DNA of 64,000 nucleotides, from the NCBI RefSeq assembly GCF_900110855.1, contig NZ_FOFA01000002.1:124001-188000 (forward strand), in the 5' to 3' direction. Below, piece after piece: positions 5,257 through 25,275 of the stretch. A program made the position numbers and the translations under genes. This stretch comes from Microlunatus flavus. Lineage in GTDB: Bacteria > Actinomycetota > Actinomycetes > Propionibacteriales > Propionibacteriaceae. Every line of letters begins with the position of its first letter. Positions within the stretch are counted from its first letter, which is position 1. Below the pieces are notes generated by a model that made no database searches, was not told the origin of the DNA, and saw only the letters and a program-made list of their open reading frames with translations.

Positions 5257-5352
5257 TGGCGGAGGCGGACGGGAATCGAACCCGCCAAGCCGAGGTGCTC
5301 GGCTTCACCGGTTTTGAAGACCGGGAGGGCCACCAGGCGCCTGTACGCCTCC
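5257..5352 (-). tRNA. selC: tRNA-Sec (anticodon UCA)
   Basis: This 96-nt tRNA-Sec gene includes an encoded CCA end. The acceptor begins GGAGGCG and pairs with CGCCTCC, and the discriminator is G. The anticodon stem-loop is CCGGT-CTTCAAA-ACCGG with anticodon TCA, which reads UGA. A long variable arm forms an AGCCGAG/CTCGGCT hairpin. The T arm is GGGTTCGATTCCC. The D stem can form about 6 bp with a mismatch, as in tRNA-Sec. Long variable arm, UCA anticodon and extended acceptor separate it from tRNA-Ser and tRNA-Leu. A TACGCT hexamer at 5360-5365 is a likely -10. The mscS-like gene, selA and selB follow on the same strand. Confidence 0.96.
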
Positions 5353-5461
5353 GTGGGCGAGCGTAGCCGTTAGGTGGAGGTCCGGTCCGGGAGCGGACCC
5401 TTCCGCGGGCGGGACCTCCGGACCGAGGATGGGCAGGAGCCGGACGACGGAGGAGGGCGCG

Positions 5462-5704
5462 ATGGCGGTGGCGCGACGGGTGCTGCTGGTCGTCGCCCTG
5501 CTCGCCGTCGTCGTCGGCCTGCTGCTTCTGGTGCGGGCGGGCGCCGCGGCGCGCGAGCAGGCGTGGGTCGACGGCTGCGTCGCCGACGGCGGCTGGGTGG
5601 CGACGACGCCGGCCGACACCGCGAACCCGCTGGTCGTCCACACCGGTCACCCCGTGCTCAGCTGCGTGAGCGAGACCGGCGTGGTGGTGTCCGTCCGGGA
5701 CTGA
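5462..5704 (+). CDS. small exported or membrane-anchored protein, unknown
   Basis: This encodes an 80-residue protein with a basic start (MAVARR), a strongly hydrophobic segment at about residues 7-24 (signal anchor or signal peptide), and a short extracytoplasmic tail. The tail contains two cysteines (VDGCVADGG and LSCVSET) that could form a disulfide. I do not recognise the family. A purine-rich GGAGGAGGG sequence lies 7-15 nt before the ATG at 5462. The gene diverges from tRNA-Sec and converges on the CotH-like gene, with a strong hairpin between the two. Confidence 0.6.
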   Translation: MAVARRVLLVVALLAVVVGLLLLVRAGAAAREQAWVDGCVADGGWVATTPADTANPLVVHTGHPVLSCVSETGVVVSVRD

Positions 5705-5786: not shown

Positions 5787-7430
5787 TCAGCGGTACTGGT
5801 CGTCCATCCAGCTGATGCGCTTCTTCAGCCAGCCGCGGAGGTAGCTGACCTCCTTCGACCACGAGCCCTTCACGACCTGGGCCTTGCTGAGGTGGCTCTT
5901 GACCGACCACTTGTCGAAGTTCGCGTCGGCCGACCTCGCGATCACCGTCCGCTGGGCGGCCAGGAAGGCGTCCTCGCCCTTCAGCTGGGGGTAGACCTCC
6001 TTCCACCGGGCCCGTACGGCCCTGCGGAAGTCGGGGTCGTCGTTCAGTCGGTTGAACCAGGTGCTGCTCGACTGCTTCGCCGAGGTCGCGACCGGGTTCT
6101 TGAGGTACCACCCGGTGGGGCTCACCGTGCCCCCGGCGCGCCTCGCGGAACCTTCGGCGAGGTCGTAGTCCCACATCGGCCCGAAGTGGAGCTTGCCGCC
6201 GCGCGGCTTGTACATGTAGACGCTGGCCCACATGTTGCCGTCGACGGGCTTGGTCAGCTCCTGGGCGAGGTAGTAGTCGACCGCCGACTTCTCGTCGATG
6301 TAGGCCTTCCACCCCTTCGTGTCGCTCTTCCAGCTCGACCCGTACAGCGCCTTGTCGGTCGCGTCGAGGTAGGAGTTGACGTAGCTGACCTGCTTCTTGG
6401 TGATGCCGGTCCCGTCGTCCTCGTCCTCCGGCTCCTTGATGCCCACCCAGCCGCGCCTGCCGGCGTGCACGTTGTGGTCCGCGTCGTGACGGAAGTCCCA
6501 CTCGAGCAGGTAGCCGCCGGTGACGTTCGGCTCCCGGTCGTTCGCGCCCGTCGGGTCCTCGGAACCGTTCACGAGCTCGTCGATGGCCACGCGGTCGTCC
6601 GCGATCGTGATCCGCTCCACGAGGAGGTAGCTGCCGCGGTACGAGCCGTTGACGTAGAGGTCGACCGGTGCCGACCTCGGCGTCCAGCCCAGGTTCGTCA
6701 GCTTCGACCCCAGGTCGAAGGCGGCGCTCTCGCGCAGCAGCGAGCGGTCGTACGCGTTGGCGATCAGCGCCCACTTCTTGCTCTTGCCCATGCCGCACAG
6801 GTCGGTCTTGGCGTCGAGCTTGACCGTGAAGGACTTCTTCGCGAAGGTCCACGAGTAGTTGCCGCGACCCTTGGCGATGACGTGCGACTGCGTCGGCACC
6901 GCCGTGCACCTCGGCAGCGCGGAGCTGGCGGTCATCGTGAACTGGCCCTCGAAGTAGCGCTTGCGCGTGTTGATCGAGTGGCCCTCGTTGGTGTTCAGGT
7001 AGACGGTCGACAGTCCGGTGCGCTTGGTGGTCGCCGGCGCGGCGAACGTGACCTCGTTCGAGACGACCTGGTCGTCGGAACCCGTTACCGCCCGGTAGCG
7101 GTGCTCGACCTCGAGCGGGTCGTCGAGGGCGAAGGTGACCTCGCCCTGCGCGTCCTCCTTCGCGGTGTCGAGCGTCTTCCAGGTGGGCTTCGTGACCTCG
7201 TCGGTGTTGGTGGTGACGAGGGTCAGCGCCTGGAGCCGGACGGTCGCCCCCTTCTTCGCCGGCGTCACGTGCGCCGTCGCGCTCGCCTGCGTCCCCGAGC
7301 TGTTGCTCCTGATCGCGTCGAGCCCGATCGCGGGCCCGGCCGCCGCCGCCCCGTCGACCATCGCCCCGGCCCCCACCACCGCGCCGACGGCCACCGCGAC
7401 CAGCAGCCCTCGTCCTCGTCCTCGTCCCAT
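5787..7430 (-). CDS. secreted CotH-kinase family protein
   Basis: This 547-residue protein has an N-terminal signal peptide: basic MGRGRGRG, a hydrophobic stretch to about residue 28, and an AAAAG-type cleavage region. An Ig-like domain (about 30-140) carries TVRLQAL-type strands. The CotH region follows (about 150-540), with GRGNYSW followed by KKSFTVKL, ALIANAYDRSLLR, RGSYLLVERI, KPVDGN and GPMWDYD. CotH of Bacillus spore coats is an atypical protein kinase that phosphorylates coat proteins; the role in an actinobacterium is unknown. I chose ATG at 7430 because a GGAGGGGG sequence precedes it. The gene is divergent from selD. Confidence 0.85.
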   Translation of the reverse strand: MGRGRGRGLLVAVAVGAVVGAGAMVDGAAAAGPAIGLDAIRSNSSGTQASATAHVTPAKKGATVRLQALTLVTTNTDEVTKPTWKTLDTAKEDAQGEVTFALDDPLEVEHRYRAVTGSDDQVVSNEVTFAAPATTKRTGLSTVYLNTNEGHSINTRKRYFEGQFTMTASSALPRCTAVPTQSHVIAKGRGNYSWTFAKKSFTVKLDAKTDLCGMGKSKKWALIANAYDRSLLRESAAFDLGSKLTNLGWTPRSAPVDLYVNGSYRGSYLLVERITIADDRVAIDELVNGSEDPTGANDREPNVTGGYLLEWDFRHDADHNVHAGRRGWVGIKEPEDEDDGTGITKKQVSYVNSYLDATDKALYGSSWKSDTKGWKAYIDEKSAVDYYLAQELTKPVDGNMWASVYMYKPRGGKLHFGPMWDYDLAEGSARRAGGTVSPTGWYLKNPVATSAKQSSSTWFNRLNDDPDFRRAVRARWKEVYPQLKGEDAFLAAQRTVIARSADANFDKWSVKSHLSKAQVVKGSWSKEVSYLRGWLKKRISWMDDQYR

Positions 7431-7527
7431 GTCCCGGCCCCCTCCGGTCACCACCGGTCAGCACCGACCGGTGTCGGTCGACGGTAAGGACGAGCGGCGC
7501 CGGCGCGGGCCGGTTCGCGAGCAGGTC

Positions 7528-7563
7528 AGGACCAAGGGCCATGACGCTCGGGACCAAGGTCCG
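7528..7563. promoter_or_regulatory. two DosR/DevR-like boxes upstream of selD
   Basis: Box 2 (7550-7563) reads GGGACCAAGGTCCG and fits the DosR core pattern GGGAC-N4-GTCC. Box 1 (7528-7541) reads AGGACCAAGGGCCA, a weaker copy with the same centre. Their centres are 22 bp apart, two helical turns, which is the usual spacing of paired DosR sites. They lie about 80-115 bp upstream of the selD start. DosR controls hypoxic and anaerobic genes in mycobacteria. No dosR gene is visible here, so assigning a regulator is inference. Confidence 0.45.
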
Positions 7564-7631
7564 CCCAGCACAGACGTCGGGCGTCCGGCCGGGCCCGGCT
7601 GGAGGCACCGGGACGGTGCCGGGCGCCTGAC

Positions 7632-7637
7632 TACGGT
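7632..7637 (+). promoter_or_regulatory. -10 element of selD (leaderless)
   Basis: TACGGT ends 7 nt before the selD GTG at 7645, which would place the transcription start at or next to the start codon. No good -35 hexamer is seen 17-18 nt upstream, which fits dependence on an activator at the upstream boxes. Confidence 0.45.
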
Positions 7638-7644
7638 TGGGCAC

Positions 7645-8652
7645 GTGACGGCGACCCTCGATCTGAAGACCGGGCCGATCAGGCTCACCCAGTACGCGCA
7701 CGGCGGCGGCTGCGCCTGCAAGATCCCGCCGGGCGAGCTCGAGGCCGTGGTCGCCGGGCTCACGCCGTGGTCCGACGCGAACCTGCTCGTCGGCCTCGAG
7801 AGCGGCGACGACGCCGCCGTCGTCCGCATCGAGGGCGACCGCGCGATCGTCGCCACCACCGACTTCTTCACCGCGGTCGTCGACGACGCGTACGACTTCG
7901 GCCGCATCGCCGCCGCGAACGCCCTCTCCGACGTCTACGCCATGGGGGCGACCCCGCTCGTCGCGCTGAACCTGGTCGGTTGGCCCCGCGACGTCCTGCC
8001 GCTCGAGCTGCTCGGAGAGGTGCTGCGCGGCGGGCTCGACGTCGCCCGCGAGGCCCACGTCCACGTCGCCGGCGGCCAGAGCATCGACGACCCCGAGCCC
8101 AAGTACGGCATGGCCGTGACCGGGATCGCCGACCCCGCGAGGCTGCTGCGCAACGACGCCGCCGAGCCCGGCCTGCCCGTCAGCCTGACCAAGCCGCTCG
8201 GCGTCGGGGTCCTCAACAACCGGCACAAGGCGACCGGCGAGGTGTTCCGCAACGCGATCGACTCGATGGTCCGGCTCAACGCCGACGCCTCCCGCGCCGC
8301 GCTCGCCGCGGGCGTCCGGGCGGTCACCGACGTGACCGGCTTCGGGTTGCTCGGGCACGGCTACAAGATGGCGCGCGCCTCGGGCGTGACCCTCGTGGTC
8401 GACCACACGAAGGTCCCGTACCTCGACGGGGCCCGGGAGGCGCTGCGCGACGGCTTCGTCAGCGGCGGCACGCGGCGCAACCTCGACTGGGTCCGCCCGC
8501 ACCTCGCCGCGGACGGCGTCGACGAGGGCGAGCTCCTGCTCCTCGCCGACGCCCAGACCAGCGGCGGCCTGCTGGTCGTCGGTGAGGTCCCCGGCGCTCC
8601 GGTGGTCGGCGAGACCGTCGCCGCCGGCGAGCATGGGATCGTGGTCCGGTGA
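7645..8652 (+). CDS. selD: selenide, water dikinase SelD (selenophosphate synthetase)
   Basis: SelD makes selenophosphate from selenide and ATP, the selenium donor for SelA. The 335-residue protein has the full N-terminal catalytic loop GGGCACK. C23 and K26 correspond to E. coli C17 and K20, so it is a cysteine, not a selenocysteine, form. AIR-synthase-like elements follow: ADDAAV-type GDDAAVV, TTDFFTAVVDD and NALSDVYAMG. DVTGFGLLGH comes later. The GTG at 7645 is chosen because it begins just before the catalytic loop and lies 7 nt after a -10 element. The stop overlaps the next gene by 4 nt (GTGA). Confidence 0.96.
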   Translation: MTATLDLKTGPIRLTQYAHGGGCACKIPPGELEAVVAGLTPWSDANLLVGLESGDDAAVVRIEGDRAIVATTDFFTAVVDDAYDFGRIAAANALSDVYAMGATPLVALNLVGWPRDVLPLELLGEVLRGGLDVAREAHVHVAGGQSIDDPEPKYGMAVTGIADPARLLRNDAAEPGLPVSLTKPLGVGVLNNRHKATGEVFRNAIDSMVRLNADASRAALAAGVRAVTDVTGFGLLGHGYKMARASGVTLVVDHTKVPYLDGAREALRDGFVSGGTRRNLDWVRPHLAADGVDEGELLLLADAQTSGGLLVVGEVPGAPVVGETVAAGEHGIVVR

Positions 8653-17993: not shown

Positions 17994-20900
17994 TCAGCTG
18001 CGCTCCTGCTTGTTCATCGAGCCCTTGGCCCCGGTGGCCCCGTCGGGGCCGCCGATGACGTCGCCGTCGAGGTCGTCCCGTGTGACGCGCCGGTGCTTGC
18101 CCTCGGCGTCCTCGGGCGGGGTGCGGTGCTCGTTGCCGGTGGCGAGCGTGACGCCCGCCCGGGCGCGGTGCGCCGCCACGTACTCGAGCAGCGCCGGGCC
18201 GCGCGGGCGCCGTCCGGGCTGGATGTCGCAGGAGGCGACCTTCGTCTCCTGGATGTGCACGTTGGCGTCGAGCGTGACCCCGAAGAGGTCGTTGGCCGAG
18301 TCGCCGGAGACCAGCGCCTGGTCGCCCTGGCCCCAGTGGTAGGGCAGGCCGATCTGGTGCACCGTGCGCCCCGCGATCCGCAGCGGGGTGACCCGCTCGG
18401 TCACCAGCACCCGGGCCTCGATGGCCGTGCGGGCGCTGATGATCGTCGCCCAGCCCAGGTTCTCCAGACCGCGCTCGCGGGCCAGCTCGGGGCTGACCTC
18501 GCAGAAGAACTCGGGCTGCAGCTCCGACAGGTAGGGCTGGAAGCGGCTCATGCCGCCGGCCGTGTGGTGCTCGGTGAGCCGGTAGGTCGTGAACACGTAC
18601 GGGTAGAGCTCGACGCCGGGCTCGTCGCCGGACGGGTTCTGGTAGTTGTCCTTGCGCGGGAAGACCTCGCGCGTCGGGTTGGCCTGCTGCCGGTACATCG
18701 GGTTGCTGACCGGCGACTCCTGCGGCTCGTAGTGCGTCGGCATCGGGCCGTCGAGCAGCCCGGCCGGCGCGTAGAGCCAGCCCTTTCCGTCCGCCTGCAT
18801 GATGAACGGGTCGTCGCCCGCGAGGCCGTCAGGACCGGAGGCACCTTCCTCGGGCCGGTACGACGGGGCCTTGCCGACCTCGAAGTCCGGCACGTCGTGC
18901 CCGGTCCACTTCTTGGCCTCCTCGTCCCACCAGACGTACGCCTTCTTCTCGCTCCACGGCTTGCCCTCGGGGTCGGCCGAGGCGCGGTTGTAGAGCGTGC
19001 GGCGGTTCATCGGCCAGGCCCAGCCCCACTCCGGGGCGACCCACGACTGCTCGCGGCCCGGCTTGCGCCGCATGGCCTGGTTGACCCCGTCGGCGAAGAC
19101 TCCGGTGTAGATCCAGCAGCCGCCCGAGGTGGAGCCGTCCGGCTTCATCTCGTTGAACGTGTTCAGCGGCTGGCCCGCCTTGTCCCCGGACAGGTGGAAG
19201 CCGTTGATCTCGGCCAGCACCGCCTCGGCGGAGATCTCCCCGTCCTCGTCCAGCGGGTAGTCCCAGGTCAGGTCGAGGATCGGCCGGTCACGGTCGTCGG
19301 TCGAGCCCGCCAGCCGCTGCCGGATCTTCTGGCCCAGCAGGTAGAAGAACTCCAGCTCGCTCTGGGCGTCACCGGGCGGGTCGACCGCCTTGTGGTGCCA
19401 CTGCAGCATCCGCTGCGTCTGGGTGAAGGTGCCGCCCTTCTCCACGTGCGAGGCCGCGGGGAAGAAGAAGACCTCGGTGTCGATCTCGTCGGTCTTGAGC
19501 TCGCCGGTCTCGATCTCCGGCGCGTCGGACCAGAAGGTCGCCGACTCGATGAGGTTGAGGTCGCGGACCACGAGCCACTTGAGGTGGGACAGGCCCATCC
19601 GCTGCATCTTGCCGTGGGCGGAGCCGACGGCCGGGTTCTGCCCGAGCAGGAAGTAGCCGTCGATCTCGTCGCGCAGCATCGACATCACCGTCGCGTACGT
19701 GCCGTGGTCGCCGGTCAGGCGCGGCATGTAGCCGAAGGCGAAGTCGTTCTCCTCGGTCGCCGCGTCGCCCCACCACGCCTTGAGCAGGCTGACGGTGTAG
19801 CTCTTGGCGTTGACCCAGAAGCCCTTCTGGTCCGGGCTGGCGATCTCGGCGACGTACTCGTCGAGGGAGTCGTGCGGTCCGACCTTGGGCATCGGCAGGT
19901 AGCCCGGCAGCAGGTTGAACAGCGTCGGGATGTCGGTCGAGCCCTGGATGCTGGCGTGACCGCGCAGGGCCATGATCCCGCCGCCCGGACGTCCCATGTT
20001 CCCCAGCAGCAGCTGGATGATCGCCGAGGTCCTGATCATCTGCACGCCCACCGTGTGGTGCGTCCAGCCGACCGAGTAGACCCAGGCGGTGGTCTTGTCG
20101 CGGCCGCTGTTCGCGGTCACGGCCTCGCAGACCTCGAGCAGCTGCTCCGGGGAGATGCCGCAGGTCTCCTGCACCATCTCGGGGGTGTAGCGGGCGAAGT
20201 GCCGCTTGAGCACCTGGAACACCGTGCGCGGGTGCTGCAGGGTCTCGTCGCGCCTGACCTCGGAGTGGTCCAACGAGGCGCCGTGGCCGCCCATCTCGTA
20301 CCCCGCGCTGCGGTCGCTCTCCGATTCCTCGGACTCGCTGCCTCCGGTCGCGCCGGAGCCGCCGCCCTTCTCCTCGCCACCCTCGTCGTCCTTGGCCGGG
20401 TCGGACGCGGGCCCGCCGCCGGCGGAGTGCTCGCCGACGCCCTCGTACGACCAGCTGGACGTGTCGTAGGTGCCGGTCTCCGGGTCGTAGCCCGAGAACA
20501 CGCCGTCGAGGTCGTCGACGTCGACGAAGTCCTCACTGACCAGGGTCGCCGCGTTGGTGTAGGCGACGACGTAGTCGTGGAAGTACTTCTCGGTGCTGAG
20601 GATGTAGTTGATGATCGCGCCGAGGAAGGCGATGTCGCTGCCCGCCCGGATCGGGACGTGCGTGTCCGCCACGGCCGACGTCCGCGTGAAGCGCGGGTCG
20701 ATGTGGATGACCTTCGCACCCCGCGCCTTGGCCTCCATCACCCACTGGAACCCGACGGGATGGCACTCGGCCATGTTCGAGCCCTCGATGACGATGCAGT
20801 CAGACTGCTGGAGGTCCTGCAGGAAGCCGGTGGCACCGCCACGGCCGAACGAGGCTCCCAGACTGGGAACCGTGGCGCTGTGTCAAATACGCGCCTGGTT

Positions 20901-21452
20901 CTCGATCTGTATGGCGCCCAGCGCGGTGAAGAGCTTCTTGATCAGGTAGTTCTCTTCGTTGTCGAGGGTGGCGCCGCCGAGCGCGGCGATGCCCATCGTC
21001 CGGCGCAGCGGCCGACCCTCGTCGTCGGTGTCCTGCCAGCGCTTGCGGCGCGACTCGACCATCCGGTCGGCGATCATGTCGGTCGCCTGCTCGACGCCGA
21101 TGCGCTCCCACTGCCTGCTGCGCGGGCGGCGGTAGAGCATCGTCGTCGCGCGGCCGGGGGAGTTCACCAGCTGCTCGCTGGCCGAGCCCTTGGGGCACAG
21201 CCGGCCGCGGGAGACGGGGGAGTCCGGGTCGCCCTCGATCTGGGTGACGTGGCCGTCCTTCACGAACACGCGCTGGCCGCAGCCGACCGCGCAGTACGGG
21301 CAGACGCTCTGCACGACCTTGTCGGCCGTCGCCGTGCGCGGCGTGATCGCCCGCGTCCTCGGCGACTGCACCGCGTTGCCGCGGCCCAGCGGGTCGCCTC
21401 CCGTGAGCTGCCGCAGCACCGGCCACTCCAGGAACGTCTTCTTGATGTCCAC
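17994..21452 (-). CDS. selenocysteine-containing formate dehydrogenase catalytic (alpha) subunit
   Basis: This 1152-residue molybdopterin enzyme oxidises formate to CO2. It is interrupted by an in-frame TGA at 20883-20885, read here as selenocysteine 190. The flanks QARI-U-HSATVPSLGASFGRG match the conserved active-site Sec of the FdnG family, and a SECIS-like hairpin follows at once. The N-terminal [4Fe-4S] ligands are C51, C54, C58 and C86. An acidic Gly/Ser/Glu-rich insert fills about residues 335-395. No twin-arginine signal is present, so the enzyme is probably cytoplasmic. GTG at 21452 follows AGGAGG. fdhB follows 1 nt downstream. Treating it as two genes or a pseudogene would be wrong given selA, selB, selC and selD nearby. 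Confidence 0.95.
20838..20885 (-). promoter_or_regulatory. Sec codon and SECIS-like hairpin of fdhA
   Basis: The TGA (20883-20885) is followed by an outer 7-bp stem, GCCACGG (20870-20876, minus sense) with CCGTGGC (20838-20844). After 15 nt comes an apical hairpin, CCC-AGUCU-GGG (20857-20867). The order CGGUU, hairpin, GUCU loop and its distance from UGA closely mirror the E. coli fdhF SECIS, whose loop contains GGUCU. SelB would bind the apical loop to direct Sec insertion. Confidence 0.85.
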
Positions 21453-21469
21453 GCTCGCCTCCTGCGGCG

Positions 21470-21649: not shown

Positions 21650-22822
21650 TCAGGGGACGACGGCGAAGTGCTCGGTGCCCAGGAGGGGGCCGAGGACCTG
21701 GACGGGCAGGAGCTCGGGGTCGAGCGCGTACTGGGTGCGGTGGGCGACGAGCGCGGCGATCTTGCGTCGGAGGGCGTCGGGGCCGACGTCGATCGAGAGC
21801 TCGGTCTGCGCACCGTCGGGCGCGGTGGAGGAGATCGGGGGCGGGTTCGGCGGGGTGCTGCGCTCGGCGGGCGCGACGACGGCGGTGGTGCCGCGGGCGG
21901 CCGACAGGTCGCGACCGCGCGGGGCGAGGACGAAGCACGTGACGTCGTCGTGGGCGATGACGTGGGCGTTGCGGGGACGGTTCGTGGCGAGGCCCTCCTC
22001 GCCGACGAACGACCCCGGCCCGACGGTCGCGACGGTGCGCAGCTCGCCGTCGGCCGACTCGCGCACGACGTCGACGCGGCCCGAGAGGATGCAGAACAGC
22101 TCGTTCGGCGGCTCGCCCTGCTCGATGACGTACGACCCGGCCGGGAACCACTGCACCTGCAGGTGGTCAGCGGCGAAGCCGAGCATCGACGAGCCGTCGG
22201 CGAAGAGCCGCAGCGCGTTGGCGAAGCCGGCGGTCCCGACGAAGCGCTGCTCGCCCGAGGTGAGCCACTCGACGAGCAGGTCGAGCAGCAGCCGTTCCTG
22301 CGGGGGGAACCGTGCCTGCAGCACCCGGGGCCGTACGGCGAGGTGCTCGCGTGCGGCGAGAACGGCCCGGGCCGACATGGTGTGGTCGGGGTGGCCGAAG
22401 GCTCCGTCGTCGCCGAACGTCACCACGACGTCCGGCGCGAGCCGCTCGAGGACCGGCAGCACCACCGCGGTGACCTCCTCGAGCGGCATCCGCCCGAGCA
22501 CGCCGTCGCCCAGGTCGAAGGACTCGACGTGGCCCACCCCGAGCGCGGCGCCGGAGGCCGCGAGCTCGGTGGCCCGTACGGCGCCCAGGGTGCGTCGGGT
22601 GGCGGCGGCGGAGTCCCGGATCTGGCCGGCGTCGCCGCGCGTCAGCGACACGACGGCCGTCTGCGCACCGGCCGCGGCCGCGCGGGCGATGGTGCCGCCG
22701 ACGCAGAAGACCTCGTCGTCGGGGTGGGCGAACAGCCCGAGGACCCGCAGCGGCCGGTCGCGCAGGACCGCCGAACCCCAGAGGCCGTCCAGGTCGTCGT
22801 CGGCGGCAAGTTCCGAGGTCAT
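21650..22822 (-). CDS. PIG-L (LmbE-type) deacetylase fused to a cyclic-nucleotide-binding domain
   Basis: This 390-residue fusion starts with a zinc-dependent de-N-acetylase of the PIG-L family. The metal motif AHPDDE (H33, D35, D36) is present, with a later GHPDHTMSAR supplying the third ligand. These enzymes remove acetyl groups from amino sugars, as in mycothiol synthesis. From about residue 222 a CNB domain follows: FPAGSYVIEQGEPPNELFCI and a phosphate-binding cassette GEEGLATNRPRNA with the key Glu and Arg. A C-terminal tail is unassigned. TACGGT lies 9 nt before the ATG. Activity controlled by cyclic nucleotide is inference. It diverges from the DUF2652 gene. Confidence 0.87.
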   Translation of the reverse strand: MTSELAADDDLDGLWGSAVLRDRPLRVLGLFAHPDDEVFCVGGTIARAAAAGAQTAVVSLTRGDAGQIRDSAAATRRTLGAVRATELAASGAALGVGHVESFDLGDGVLGRMPLEEVTAVVLPVLERLAPDVVVTFGDDGAFGHPDHTMSARAVLAAREHLAVRPRVLQARFPPQERLLLDLLVEWLTSGEQRFVGTAGFANALRLFADGSSMLGFAADHLQVQWFPAGSYVIEQGEPPNELFCILSGRVDVVRESADGELRTVATVGPGSFVGEEGLATNRPRNAHVIAHDDVTCFVLAPRGRDLSAARGTTAVVAPAERSTPPNPPPISSTAPDGAQTELSIDVGPDALRRKIAALVAHRTQYALDPELLPVQVLGPLLGTEHFAVVP

Positions 22823-22938
22823 GGCCCGGACACCGTAGCCCGCCCGGACCGGCGCCGTTCCCGGTCCGGGACCGGTGGTCGGCGAACAGTGGAGCGGGAT
22901 GCATCGACGCCGGCGCGGGCAGTTGCTACGTTCCGCCG

Positions 22939-23655
22939 ATGGCGACCCGTCGCGAGCTCCTCCTCATCGCCGACATCGGCGGCTACACGGACTACATGCA
23001 GTTCCACCGCAGCGTCCTGGGCCACGCCGAGGCCGCCACCCGCCGCATGCTCGACAAGATCGTCGACGCGGTCCCCGGCTTCCGGCTGGTGGAGATCGAG
23101 GGCGACGCCGCGTTCCTGGCCCGCGACGTCGGGGGCCTCGACGGGCCGGCCGTCTTCGCCGCCGTCTCCAGCGCGGCCCGGGCCATGCACCGCGCGTTCC
23201 ACGCCGAGCGGCGCCACATCGAGCTGAACCTCTGCCCGTGCGGGAGCTGCACCGCGACCAACGGCCTCAAGCTCAAGTTCGTCGCGCACGTCGGCGAGGT
23301 GGCCACGCAGACGATCCGTCGCCGGACCAAGCTGGTCGGGCTGGACGTCATCCACGTCCACCGCCTGCTCAAGAACCCGGTGACGCTCCCGGAGTACCTG
23401 CTGGTCACCGACGAGCTGCGCGCCGACGCCGGCGCGGCCGCCGACGGGCTGCCGCTGGAGCCGCTGGCCCTGGACCTGGAGGGCATCGGGGCGACGCGCG
23501 CCCACGTGGTGGCGCTGAGCGCCCTGCCGCCGCTGCCCGACCTGCCCGACCCGCGGTGGCCGCGCCGGGTCGCGAGCACGTTCGCAATGGTCGGCCGGGG
23601 CCTGCCCCACGTCCTGCCGCGGCGCACGGCCCGCGGGCTCGCGTCGACCGGCTGA
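22939..23655 (+). CDS. DUF2652 protein, class III nucleotidyl cyclase-like
   Basis: This 238-residue protein has LLLIADIGGYTDYM at its start and EIEGDAAFL at residues 52-60. D12 and D56 match the two metal-binding aspartates of class III cyclases. KLKFVAHVGEV and LVGLDVIHVHRLLKN resemble the GIHxG and G..VN.AARL segments. The transition-state Asn is replaced (VIHVH), although R142 remains, so activity is uncertain. An insert CPCGSC (C99, C101, C104) could bind metal. TACGTT lies 6 nt before the ATG, suggesting a leaderless transcript. Two CNB-domain proteins flank it on the opposite strand. Confidence 0.8.
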   Translation: MATRRELLLIADIGGYTDYMQFHRSVLGHAEAATRRMLDKIVDAVPGFRLVEIEGDAAFLARDVGGLDGPAVFAAVSSAARAMHRAFHAERRHIELNLCPCGSCTATNGLKLKFVAHVGEVATQTIRRRTKLVGLDVIHVHRLLKNPVTLPEYLLVTDELRADAGAAADGLPLEPLALDLEGIGATRAHVVALSALPPLPDLPDPRWPRRVASTFAMVGRGLPHVLPRRTARGLASTG

Positions 23656-23664
23656 CCTCCGGCC

Positions 23665-25275
23665 TCAGGCGGGCGGGGCCGCGTCGCGCGCCCGTACGCG
23701 GCCCACGGCGTCGGCACCGGCCGAGGCGCTGACGGGGTAGCCGGTGACGGCGGTGAGGAAGTGGGCGCGCCCGAGGACCGCGACCTCCACGGCGGCGTCG
23801 GCGGGCGCCCGGACGGTCGCCGTGCGCGGCTCGTCGCCGAGCAGCGCCACCTCGCCGAAGCCGTCGCCGGGACCGAGGACGTTGACGACGCGCCCGTCGC
23901 GGACCACCTCGGGTCGGCCGGTCTCGACGACGTAGAAGGCGTCGCCCACCTCGCCCTGCTCGACCACGGCCTGTCCGGCCGGCACCCGCCGGTGGGCCAG
24001 GCCGGCGCCGAGCTGCTCGATGGTCGCCGCCGGCAGCACGGCGAGCATCGGGACCGCCTGCAGGGTGGCGATGTCGGCGTCGCGGACCCGCAGCTGCGTG
24101 TCGAGCCGGCGCAGCGCGGGCAGCGCGACGAGCACGGCGAGCGGGGCCAGCACGCCGACCACGACGAGCGCCGGCCGCAGGCCGAGCCCGTCCACGAGAG
24201 GCGGGGCCACCAGGCCGCCGAGCGCGACGCCGAGGGTGAGGACGGCCTCGAACCCGGCGAACATCCGCGCCAGCACCCGCTCGTCGGTGAGCCGGGCCAG
24301 CATGGTGAAGCCGGCGACGTCGATCAGGGCGTTGCCCACCCCGACCAGGCCGAGCAGCGCGATCACCGGCGCCTGCTCGGGCACGAGCGCCAGGAGCGCG
24401 ACCGGCCCACCGAAGGTGGCCACGCCGACGCCGAACCAGCTGCCGAGGCCGCCCCGGCGCACGAGCCGGAACGCGCAGAGCGACCCGAGCACCCCGCCCG
24501 CGCCGACGGCCGCGCTCAGGACGCCGACGCCGGGTTCCCCGGTCCGGAGCAGGTCGATCGCGACGGCGACCGTGAACACGGTGAGAGCCCCGCGGGTGAA
24601 GGTCTGCACCACGCCCAGACCGGTGATGAGCGCGAGGCGCCGGTCCGCCCCGATGGTGGCGAAGCCCTCGACGACGTCGCGGGCGGGGGAGCGGCGAGCG
24701 GGACCGGCCGACCGGGGCGGTGCGTCGTACGGCAGCGCCACGACCACGAGGCCCGCGAGCAGCGACAGGCCCGCGCAGACGGCGAAGACGACCGCGGGCC
24801 CCGTGGTCGCGAGCAGCGCGGCGGCCACGACCGGCCCGCCGAGGGTGGCCGCGGAGTCGAGGAGCCCGCGCACCGCGTTCGCCGACGTCAGCTCGACGGG
24901 CGACCGGGCGAGGGCGGGGAGCAGCGCGGAGTGCGCCGGCCGGAACAGCGCGAGCGCGACCGTCGCCACGACCGCGCAGCCGTAGAGGGCGGCCCCGGGG
25001 GCGTCGAGCGCGGTGACGACCGCGGCCGTCCCGAGCGCCGCCGCCCGGACGAGCCCGATGGTCACGAGCACGCGCTCGCGGCGCACCCGGTCAGCGACGG
25101 TCGCGAGGAACGGCGTCAGTAGCGCCGCCGAGGCCATCCGGACGGCGGTGACGACCCCGACCGCCGCGACCCCGCCCTGCGCGAAGGCCACCACGGCCAG
25201 CGCGACCATGAACGCCGCCTCGCCCGCCCACATCGCGGCGAAGGACACGTGCGCCCGTCGCAGCACCGGGGTCAC
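23665..25275 (-). CDS. MFS transporter fused to a C-terminal cyclic-nucleotide-binding domain
   Basis: This 536-residue protein has 11-12 hydrophobic helices over residues 1 to about 405, as in the MFS. A soluble CNB domain lies at about 415-520. The CNB shows VPAGQAVVEQGEVGDAFYVV and a canonical phosphate-binding cassette FGEVALLGDEPRTATV with Glu and Arg present. Ligand-gated transport is the obvious hypothesis; the substrate is unknown. The start is GTG at 25275, overlapping the preceding gene by 4 nt. Its stop is only 9 nt from that of the DUF2652 gene, in convergent arrangement. Confidence 0.87.
   Translation of the reverse strand: MTPVLRRAHVSFAAMWAGEAAFMVALAVVAFAQGGVAAVGVVTAVRMASAALLTPFLATVADRVRRERVLVTIGLVRAAALGTAAVVTALDAPGAALYGCAVVATVALALFRPAHSALLPALARSPVELTSANAVRGLLDSAATLGGPVVAAALLATTGPAVVFAVCAGLSLLAGLVVVALPYDAPPRSAGPARRSPARDVVEGFATIGADRRLALITGLGVVQTFTRGALTVFTVAVAIDLLRTGEPGVGVLSAAVGAGGVLGSLCAFRLVRRGGLGSWFGVGVATFGGPVALLALVPEQAPVIALLGLVGVGNALIDVAGFTMLARLTDERVLARMFAGFEAVLTLGVALGGLVAPPLVDGLGLRPALVVVGVLAPLAVLVALPALRRLDTQLRVRDADIATLQAVPMLAVLPAATIEQLGAGLAHRRVPAGQAVVEQGEVGDAFYVVETGRPEVVRDGRVVNVLGPGDGFGEVALLGDEPRTATVRAPADAAVEVAVLGRAHFLTAVTGYPVSASAGADAVGRVRARDAAPPA

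What the first reader, a model, noticed from the sequence alone, without database searches (positions are those of the whole stretch)
21650..25275. Possible local cyclic-nucleotide module: DUF2652 cyclase-like gene flanked by two CNB-domain fusions
The sequence shows three adjacent genes. A DUF2652 protein has both metal-binding aspartates of class III cyclases (D12, D56) and a G..V....RL segment. A PIG-L deacetylase and an MFS transporter each end in a CNB domain with the Glu and Arg of the phosphate-binding cassette. Established knowledge is that CNB domains bind cAMP/cGMP and class III cyclases make them. Inference: the DUF2652 protein makes a nucleotide signal that gates deacetylation and transport. 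Against it, the transition-state Asn is missing in DUF2652 and a CPCGSC insert is present, so it could be a sensor or a degenerate enzyme.
Basis: partly seen in the sequence, partly recalled or inferred. Interest (0 to 1): 0.75.

Follow-up and report, generated by a model that had tools for sequence, protein, structure and literature searches.

The report
Cyclase-like gene paired with nucleotide-gated effectors
In several families of actinobacteria, a gene shaped like an enzyme that makes cyclic-nucleotide signals sits beside a transporter, and sometimes a deacetylase, that carry the domain for sensing such signals, which suggests a small local signalling unit; whether the cyclase-like protein makes the signal is untested.

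Summary
The three genes are real and where stated. One correction: the deacetylase does not end in its CNB domain; the CNB is nested inside PIG-L. The neighbourhood is conserved: a CNB lies within 4 kb of DUF2652 in 24 of 34 DUF2652-bearing genomes, in five gene orders. The PIG-L-CNB fusion occurs in 6 of 391 order genomes, each time beside DUF2652. The MFS-CNB partner differs between relatives whose DUF2652 is alike, so the link looks selected. The DUF2652 model has the class III cyclase fold. D12, D56, R142, a charge-swapped E52/K131 pair and CxCxxC are invariant in 26 of 26 CNB-linked homologues; the catalytic Asn is Ile. DUF2652 as a cyclase family, some with CNB neighbours, is published (PMC4886424). 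Not found in print: the MFS-CNB core pair, nested PIG-L-CNB, partner change. Catalysis, nucleotide and CNB binding are untested. Against strict dependence: 33 of 34 DUF2652-bearing genomes also hold a canonical cyclase, and some relatives keep MFS-CNB with DUF2652 broken or missing.

The parts
21650..22822 (-). PIG-L deacetylase with nested CNB domain (390 aa)
   Evidence: Pfam PF02585 aa 30-157 and PF00027 aa 224-299; tail comparison
22352..22735 (-). PIG-L catalytic core (HPDDE aa 33-37, HPDH aa 144-147)
   Evidence: both motifs invariant in 8 of 8 aligned homologues
21926..22153 (-). CNB domain nested in PIG-L (PBC G-E275-E-G ... P-R284-N-A-H-V)
21665..21778 (-). PIG-L C-terminal segment that follows the CNB
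   Evidence: aligns with the C-terminal part of 11 stand-alone PIG-L proteins
22939..23655 (+). DUF2652 class III cyclase-like protein (238 aa)
   Evidence: PF10851; AlphaFold2 mean pLDDT 80.1; Foldseek to CyaC 1wc1 E 1.3e-9
22972..22974 (+). D12, first metal-site Asp
   Evidence: 26 of 26 CNB-linked homologues
23104..23106 (+). D56, second metal-site Asp
   Evidence: 26 of 26 CNB-linked homologues
23233..23250 (+). CPCGSC: conserved CxCxxC triad
   Evidence: 36 of 36 counted DUF2652 proteins
23665..25275 (-). MFS transporter with C-terminal CNB (536 aa)
   Evidence: PF07690 and PF00027
23749..23991 (-). CNB domain of the MFS protein (PBC F-G-E475-V-A-L ... P-R484-T-A-T-V)

Best explanation
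A local cyclic-nucleotide module. DUF2652 is a divergent, soluble, probably homodimeric class III nucleotide cyclase. D12 and D56 hold the metals, the E52/K131 pair selects the base (GTP most likely, because Glu replaces the adenine-selecting Lys), and R142 stabilises the transition state. The CxCxxC triad probably binds a metal or senses redox or thiol state and sets activity. The cyclic nucleotide then binds the C-terminal CNB of the neighbouring MFS transporter and, where present, the CNB nested in the PIG-L deacetylase, gating transport and amide hydrolysis together. Shown here: gene content, conservation, cyclase fold of a model, nested CNB, change of partner. Inferred: catalysis, base choice, ligand binding, gating, role of the cysteines.
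For: Neighbourhood: CNB within 4 kb of DUF2652 in 24 of 34 genomes, about 0.01 expected per genome. Five gene orders with the same content. PIG-L-CNB full fusion in 6 of 391 order genomes, all six beside DUF2652, then a gap from E 1.2e-195 to 1.5e-35, where matches cover only the PIG-L part (only 5 candidates per genome were scored); in 147 class genomes only the window's own genome had it. Change of the MFS-CNB partner: DUF2652 is 72-73% but MFS-CNB 34-37% identical between the window and G090/G095, and AU tests reject one clade for window plus G090/G095/G104 MFS-CNBs (p 1e-64) and for 31 linked or closely related ones (p 0.00077). Cyclase fold: Foldseek E 1.3e-9 to CyaC, 180 PDB chains at E <= 0.001, the 50 shown all being nucleotide cyclases. 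D12, D56, E52, K131, R142 in 26 of 26. No PF00211 match at E <= 0.001 in the window's genome although it has 5 CNB proteins, a CRP among them. In one Kribbella genome (G267) a canonical class III cyclase lies beside MFS-CNB and DUF2652, and a third, CNB-only protein lies nearby.
Against: The transition-state Asn is Ile in 36 of 36. 33 of the 34 DUF2652-bearing genomes, the five other DUF2652-bearing congeners among them, also have PF00211 cyclases that could supply the CNBs; 7 of 14 congeners without DUF2652 lack PF00211 too, so its absence in the window's genome is weak support. I found no activity data for any DUF2652 (listings). DUF2652 frames are broken beside MFS-CNB in G285 and G309, a short remnant is left in G387, and none was found beside the MFS-CNB of G326 or G102. 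26 of 49 order genomes with an MFS-CNB query match have no DUF2652 hit; in 25 of them the match spans the CNB columns. The eight g43 and two divergent homologues have no CNB nearby among the listed matches. PBC Glu is Gln in 3 same-genus PIG-L-CNBs. The E/K swap is a single change on the tree. Profile-profile comparison with three cyclase domains was not significant (E 0.11), and no PDB chain matched the DUF2652 profile by sequence.
Confidence: 0.47

Rival explanations
1. DUF2652 is a catalytically dead class III fold that binds a nucleotide or metal and regulates the CNB effectors by direct contact or by sequestering nucleotide; the CNBs are loaded by nucleotide from elsewhere.
For: Asn replaced by Ile in 36 of 36, an unusual E/K base-site pair and a Cys triad; canonical cyclases present in 33 of 34 carriers.
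Against: Both metal Asp and the Arg are retained in 26 of 26 CNB-linked homologues; no PF00211 match in the window's own genome.
Confidence: 0.27
2. The CNB effectors answer to a cell-wide cAMP pool made by ordinary class III cyclases; DUF2652 is linked to them for another shared role (for example metal or thiol sensing).
For: 40 of 48 genomes tested, and 33 of 34 with DUF2652, have PF00211; MFS-CNB kept where DUF2652 is broken or absent.
Against: Own genome has no PF00211 match, and a REC-cyclase query gave no match there beyond query position 192 of 398, short of its cyclase part; the PIG-L-CNB fusion was not seen without DUF2652 in the genomes examined.
Confidence: 0.2
3. The neighbourhood is inherited linkage or co-transfer without functional coupling.
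For: Patchy distribution: 23 of 391 order genomes and 13 of 394 class genomes.
Against: Five gene orders and a different MFS-CNB partner beside similar DUF2652.
Confidence: 0.05

Closest known systems
DUF2652 nucleotide cyclase-like family (Ramakrishnan et al. 2016, PMC4886424; I read parts 1-3 of 6 of the text and found passages in the rest)
   Same: Same Pfam family, class III relation, metal Asp pair, E/K ('GC', Modestobacter among them) versus K/E ('AC/GC') base-site types, Asn lost; CNB genes reported as neighbours (Rv2561 with Rv2564 and Rv2565)
   Different: Their table of associated neighbours is mostly mycobacterial and has no MFS or PIG-L entry (it rests on five domain types); the MFS-CNB core pair, nested PIG-L-CNB and partner change do not appear in the parts I read
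MFS transporters with C-terminal CNB (noted in PMC10710835, passage seen, citing Willson 2019; Rv3239c and Rv3728 as examples are recalled, from no call)
   Same: Architecture of the transporter
   Different: Here tied to a cyclase-like gene; the passage seen names no cyclase partner
PIG-L deacetylases MshB, Mca, BshB1, BshB2
   Same: Family match and HPDDE/HPDH motifs
   Different: Far under the NCBIfam cut-offs (best 73.1 against 195.25 bits); carries a nested CNB
Class III cyclase beside an MscS-CNB channel (G090, L085)
   Same: Cyclase gene next to a CNB-fused membrane protein
   Different: Canonical PF00211 cyclase, channel instead of MFS

Membership tests
DUF2652 (PF10851) | Pfam score over gathering cut-off | tested here: met
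   119.5 against 22.1 bits
Class III nucleotide cyclase | cyclase fold | tested here: met
   predicted model only; Foldseek E 1.3e-9 to CyaC
Class III nucleotide cyclase | two metal-binding Asp | tested here: met
   D12 and D56, 26 of 26 CNB-linked homologues; geometry not measured
Class III nucleotide cyclase | canonical base-selecting pair (Lys/Asp or Glu/Cys) | tested here: not met
   E52/K131, charge-swapped
Class III nucleotide cyclase | transition-state Asn and Arg | tested here: inconclusive
   Arg142 present, Asn replaced by Ile138; some active cyclases lack Asn according to PMC4886424
Class III nucleotide cyclase | match to PF00211 or another cyclase sequence profile | tested here: not met
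   no PF00211 listed in the Pfam scan with limit E 10, whose filters drop most weak matches; hhalign E 0.11
Class III nucleotide cyclase | cyclase activity | not testable with these tools
   needs assay
CNB domain (PF00027), both proteins | Pfam cut-off and PBC Glu plus Arg | tested here: met
   scores 71.8 and 63.8 against 27.5 bits; E275/R284 and E475/R484; E275 is Gln in 3 same-genus homologues
CNB domain, both proteins | cyclic nucleotide binding | not testable with these tools
   needs binding assay
PIG-L (PF02585) | Pfam cut-off and zinc-site motifs | tested here: met
   106.2 against 28.2 bits; HPDDE and HPDH invariant in 8 of 8; their role as zinc site is recalled
MshB, Mca or BshB equivalogs | NCBIfam cut-off | tested here: not met

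The most novel reading that the evidence does not exclude
A new class of cysteine-triad cyclase with a charge-swapped base pocket (E/K) makes a dedicated cyclic nucleotide, perhaps cGMP or a non-canonical one, in response to thiol or metal stress; the signal switches on a deacetylase through a CNB nested in its fold and an MFS exporter through a C-terminal CNB, forming a cell-autonomous detoxification circuit.
Probability: 0.15. Interest if true: 0.8.

Novelty: new variant of a known kind. Interest (0 to 1): 0.55.

Why it matters
DUF2652 was predicted in 2016 to be a cyclase family, and I saw no activity test in the listings. This module offers a compact test system: the likely product can be read out by two linked effectors, one of them a soluble enzyme whose activity could be measured directly. 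A CNB nested in a PIG-L fold would be an unusual way to put deacetylation under second-messenger control. The uniform E/K pocket of CNB-linked DUF2652, against K/E in 9 of 10 homologues without a CNB neighbour, gives a testable rule for base choice.

Tried and rejected
Considered and rejected: (1) both proteins 'end' in CNB: true for MFS only. (2) The FDH gene to the left as part of the module: the FDH query had no match at E 1e-3 in any of the 15 loci. (3) DUF2652 as the general replacement for a missing PF00211 cyclase: 7 of 14 congeners without DUF2652 lack PF00211 too, and 33 of 34 DUF2652-bearing genomes have it. (4) Independent repeats of the E/K swap: one change on the tree. (5) PIG-L-CNB structure model: mean pLDDT 53.3, not used. 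(6) hhalign of DUF2652 against three cyclase domains: not significant, used only for residue correspondence. (7) No PDB chain matches the DUF2652 profile by sequence. (8) Plasmid searches: two distant DUF2652, no PIG-L-CNB. (9) Promoter and terminator scan: nothing found. (10) The REC-cyclase query in the own genome tests absence of a cyclase only weakly.

Rows dropped and limits: in the counts the duplicates L061 and L082 and the broken L071 were left out (39 aligned rows, 36 counted); L061 and L082 are from the same contigs as L024 and L023 (equal contig lengths). In the MFS tree L061, L082 and the partial L015 were left out; in the DUF2652 tree L061, L082, L071 and L017. The groups of the AU tests were named after the tree had been seen; the 31-row group includes L125-L127, which have no full DUF2652 beside them, and L128, a contig of G104 that I take to be the rest of its MFS gene; long branches are present. 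One search listed only its best matches, so zero CNB near ten DUF2652 genes holds for the listed matches only. Of the 24 loci L101-L124, 11 passed the motif filter.
Full report
What is there. DUF2652 and MFS-CNB are convergent (9 bases between their ends), DUF2652 and PIG-L-CNB divergent (116 bases). The window is part of a 4.79 Mb genome.

Correction to the observation. In the PIG-L protein the CNB is nested. Stand-alone PIG-L proteins carry, after the catalytic core, a segment with K..AL.AH.SQ; in the fusion this segment lies after the CNB (aa about 349-386), with the CNB at aa 224-299 between it and the core (11 stand-alone and 4 fusion proteins). HPDDE and HPDH are kept in 8 of 8. The CNB of the MFS protein is C-terminal. 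A structure model of the fusion was too poor to use.

Conservation of the neighbourhood. MFS-CNB lies within 2 kb of DUF2652 in six of six and PIG-L-CNB in three of six. In whole genomes DUF2652 is sparse: 23 of 391 in the order, 13 of 394 in a class sample that overlaps it. Of 34 such genomes 24 have a CNB within 4 kb of DUF2652 (G285 and G309 among them, whose DUF2652 frames are broken); the ten others are eight of genus g43 and two divergent homologues. The gene orders are: PIG-L(-) DUF(+) MFS(-) in the window; DUF(-) PIG-L(+) MFS(+) in G090, G095 and, mirrored, G104 (whose MFS gene runs off the contig); DUF(+) PIG-L(-) MFS(+) in Blastococcus; MFS(+) DUF(+) PIG-L(+) in two of four g30 (Kribbella) genomes; and MFS then DUF2652 on the same strand in the rest. 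Apart from these fusions and frames overlapping or joined to them in the clustering, no protein cluster within 7 kb was shared by more than 7 of the 36 loci clustered.

Converse test. A full PIG-L-CNB fusion was found in 6 of 391 order genomes, each beside DUF2652; the next match drops from E 1.2e-195 to 1.5e-35 and covers only the PIG-L part. In 147 class genomes only the window's genome had it. These searches scored only 5 or 13 candidates per genome. For MFS-CNB, 23 of 391 genomes have a match at E <= 1e-212. In 20 of them DUF2652 is adjacent, two of these (G285, G309) with broken frames; in G102, G326 and G387 it is not, with a short remnant in G387. At E <= 1e-60, 49 of 391 genomes match; these include the 23 with a DUF2652 hit and 26 without, and in 25 of the 26 the match spans the CNB columns (not checked by Pfam). 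So in the genomes examined PIG-L-CNB appears only with DUF2652, whereas MFS-CNB is a wider kind from which DUF2652 partners are drawn.

Change of partner. DUF2652 of the window, G090, G095, G104 and Blastococcus form one clade (100/100). Their MFS-CNBs do not: window and G090/G095 are 34-37% identical, against 72-73% for DUF2652, and AU tests reject one clade for window with its congeners (p 1e-64) and for 31 linked or closely related rows (p 0.00077). The groups were named after seeing the tree and long branches are present, so the exact placement is unsure. A different partner that still carries a CNB is hard to explain by inherited linkage.

The DUF2652 protein. The AlphaFold2 model (mean pLDDT 80.1, 7 sequences) matches class III cyclases: best CyaC of S. 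platensis, E 1.3e-9, target TM 0.76, and the 50 chains shown of 180 at E <= 0.001 are all nucleotide cyclases. By alignment D12 and D56 take the metal sites, E52 the adenine-selecting Lys, K131 the Asp, I138 the Asn and R142 the Arg (that comparison itself is not significant, E 0.11; the roles of the canonical residues are recalled and as given in PMC4886424). All are invariant in 26 of 26 CNB-linked homologues. In the eight g43 homologues the pair is K/E in seven and E/K in one, and in the two divergent ones K/E; CxCxxC and H117 are present in all 36 counted. The E/K swap counts as one change on the tree, so coupling is not shown by repeated events here. PMC4886424 reports E/K in Bacteroidetes and Modestobacter too and proposes GTP for it.

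Other cyclases. The window's genome has no PF00211 match at E <= 0.001, but it is the exception: 33 of 34 DUF2652-bearing genomes have one or more, while 7 of 14 congeners without DUF2652 have none. A canonical cyclase is therefore usually available to the CNBs. In Kribbella G267 one lies directly beside the module.

What is known. The DUF2652-cyclase relation, the E/K and K/E types, loss of Asn, and CNB neighbours in M. tuberculosis are in PMC4886424 (parts 1-3 of 6 read, other passages seen). MFS-CNB fusions are mentioned in PMC10710835 (passage seen). I saw no experiment on DUF2652 and no PIG-L-CNB report in the listings (15 of 22 papers shown), which cover open-licence PMC only.

Judgement. 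Functional linkage of DUF2652 and the CNB fusions: very likely. DUF2652 as an active cyclase feeding them: about even. A dead or sensing cyclase fold is the main rival. The idea of a thiol or metal-stress circuit rests on the Cys triad and on the mycothiol enzymes in the PIG-L family (recalled; weak NCBIfam matches) and is speculation.

Noticed in passing
window 17997-21461(-); 5257-5352(-): Formate dehydrogenase alpha subunit with an in-frame TGA that looks like selenocysteine (U193 of the frame read), and a tRNA-Sec gene in the same window: a selenoprotein locus.
   Followed up: partly
L024 4709-6355(-) and 11288-11878(+): Kribbella: a canonical class III cyclase lies beside MFS-CNB and DUF2652, and a third, CNB-only protein (197 aa) follows PIG-L-CNB.
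   Followed up: partly
L085 1-1920(+) and 1808-3364(+): G090: PF00211 cyclase gene followed by an MscS-type channel with CNB, another cyclase plus CNB-effector pair.
   Followed up: no
L020 4754-7141(-): Own genome: protein with a CNB followed by a histidine-kinase ATPase domain, a possible cyclic-nucleotide-gated kinase.
   Followed up: no
L071 about 7172-7707; L072 about 5413-5615; L125 about 8568-8651: Broken or remnant DUF2652 frames beside MFS-CNB genes; could be decay or assembly error.
   Followed up: partly
L016 455-1711(-): Divergent K/E-type DUF2652 in a congener carries a long C-terminal extension that looks like an SRPBCC (polyketide cyclase) domain by eye (not scanned); PMC4886424 names such a fusion in Bradyrhizobium.
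   Followed up: no
L137 5965-7098(+): DUF2652 gene of 377 aa on a Rhodobacterales plasmid, no CNB gene annotated within 6 kb of the match.
   Followed up: no
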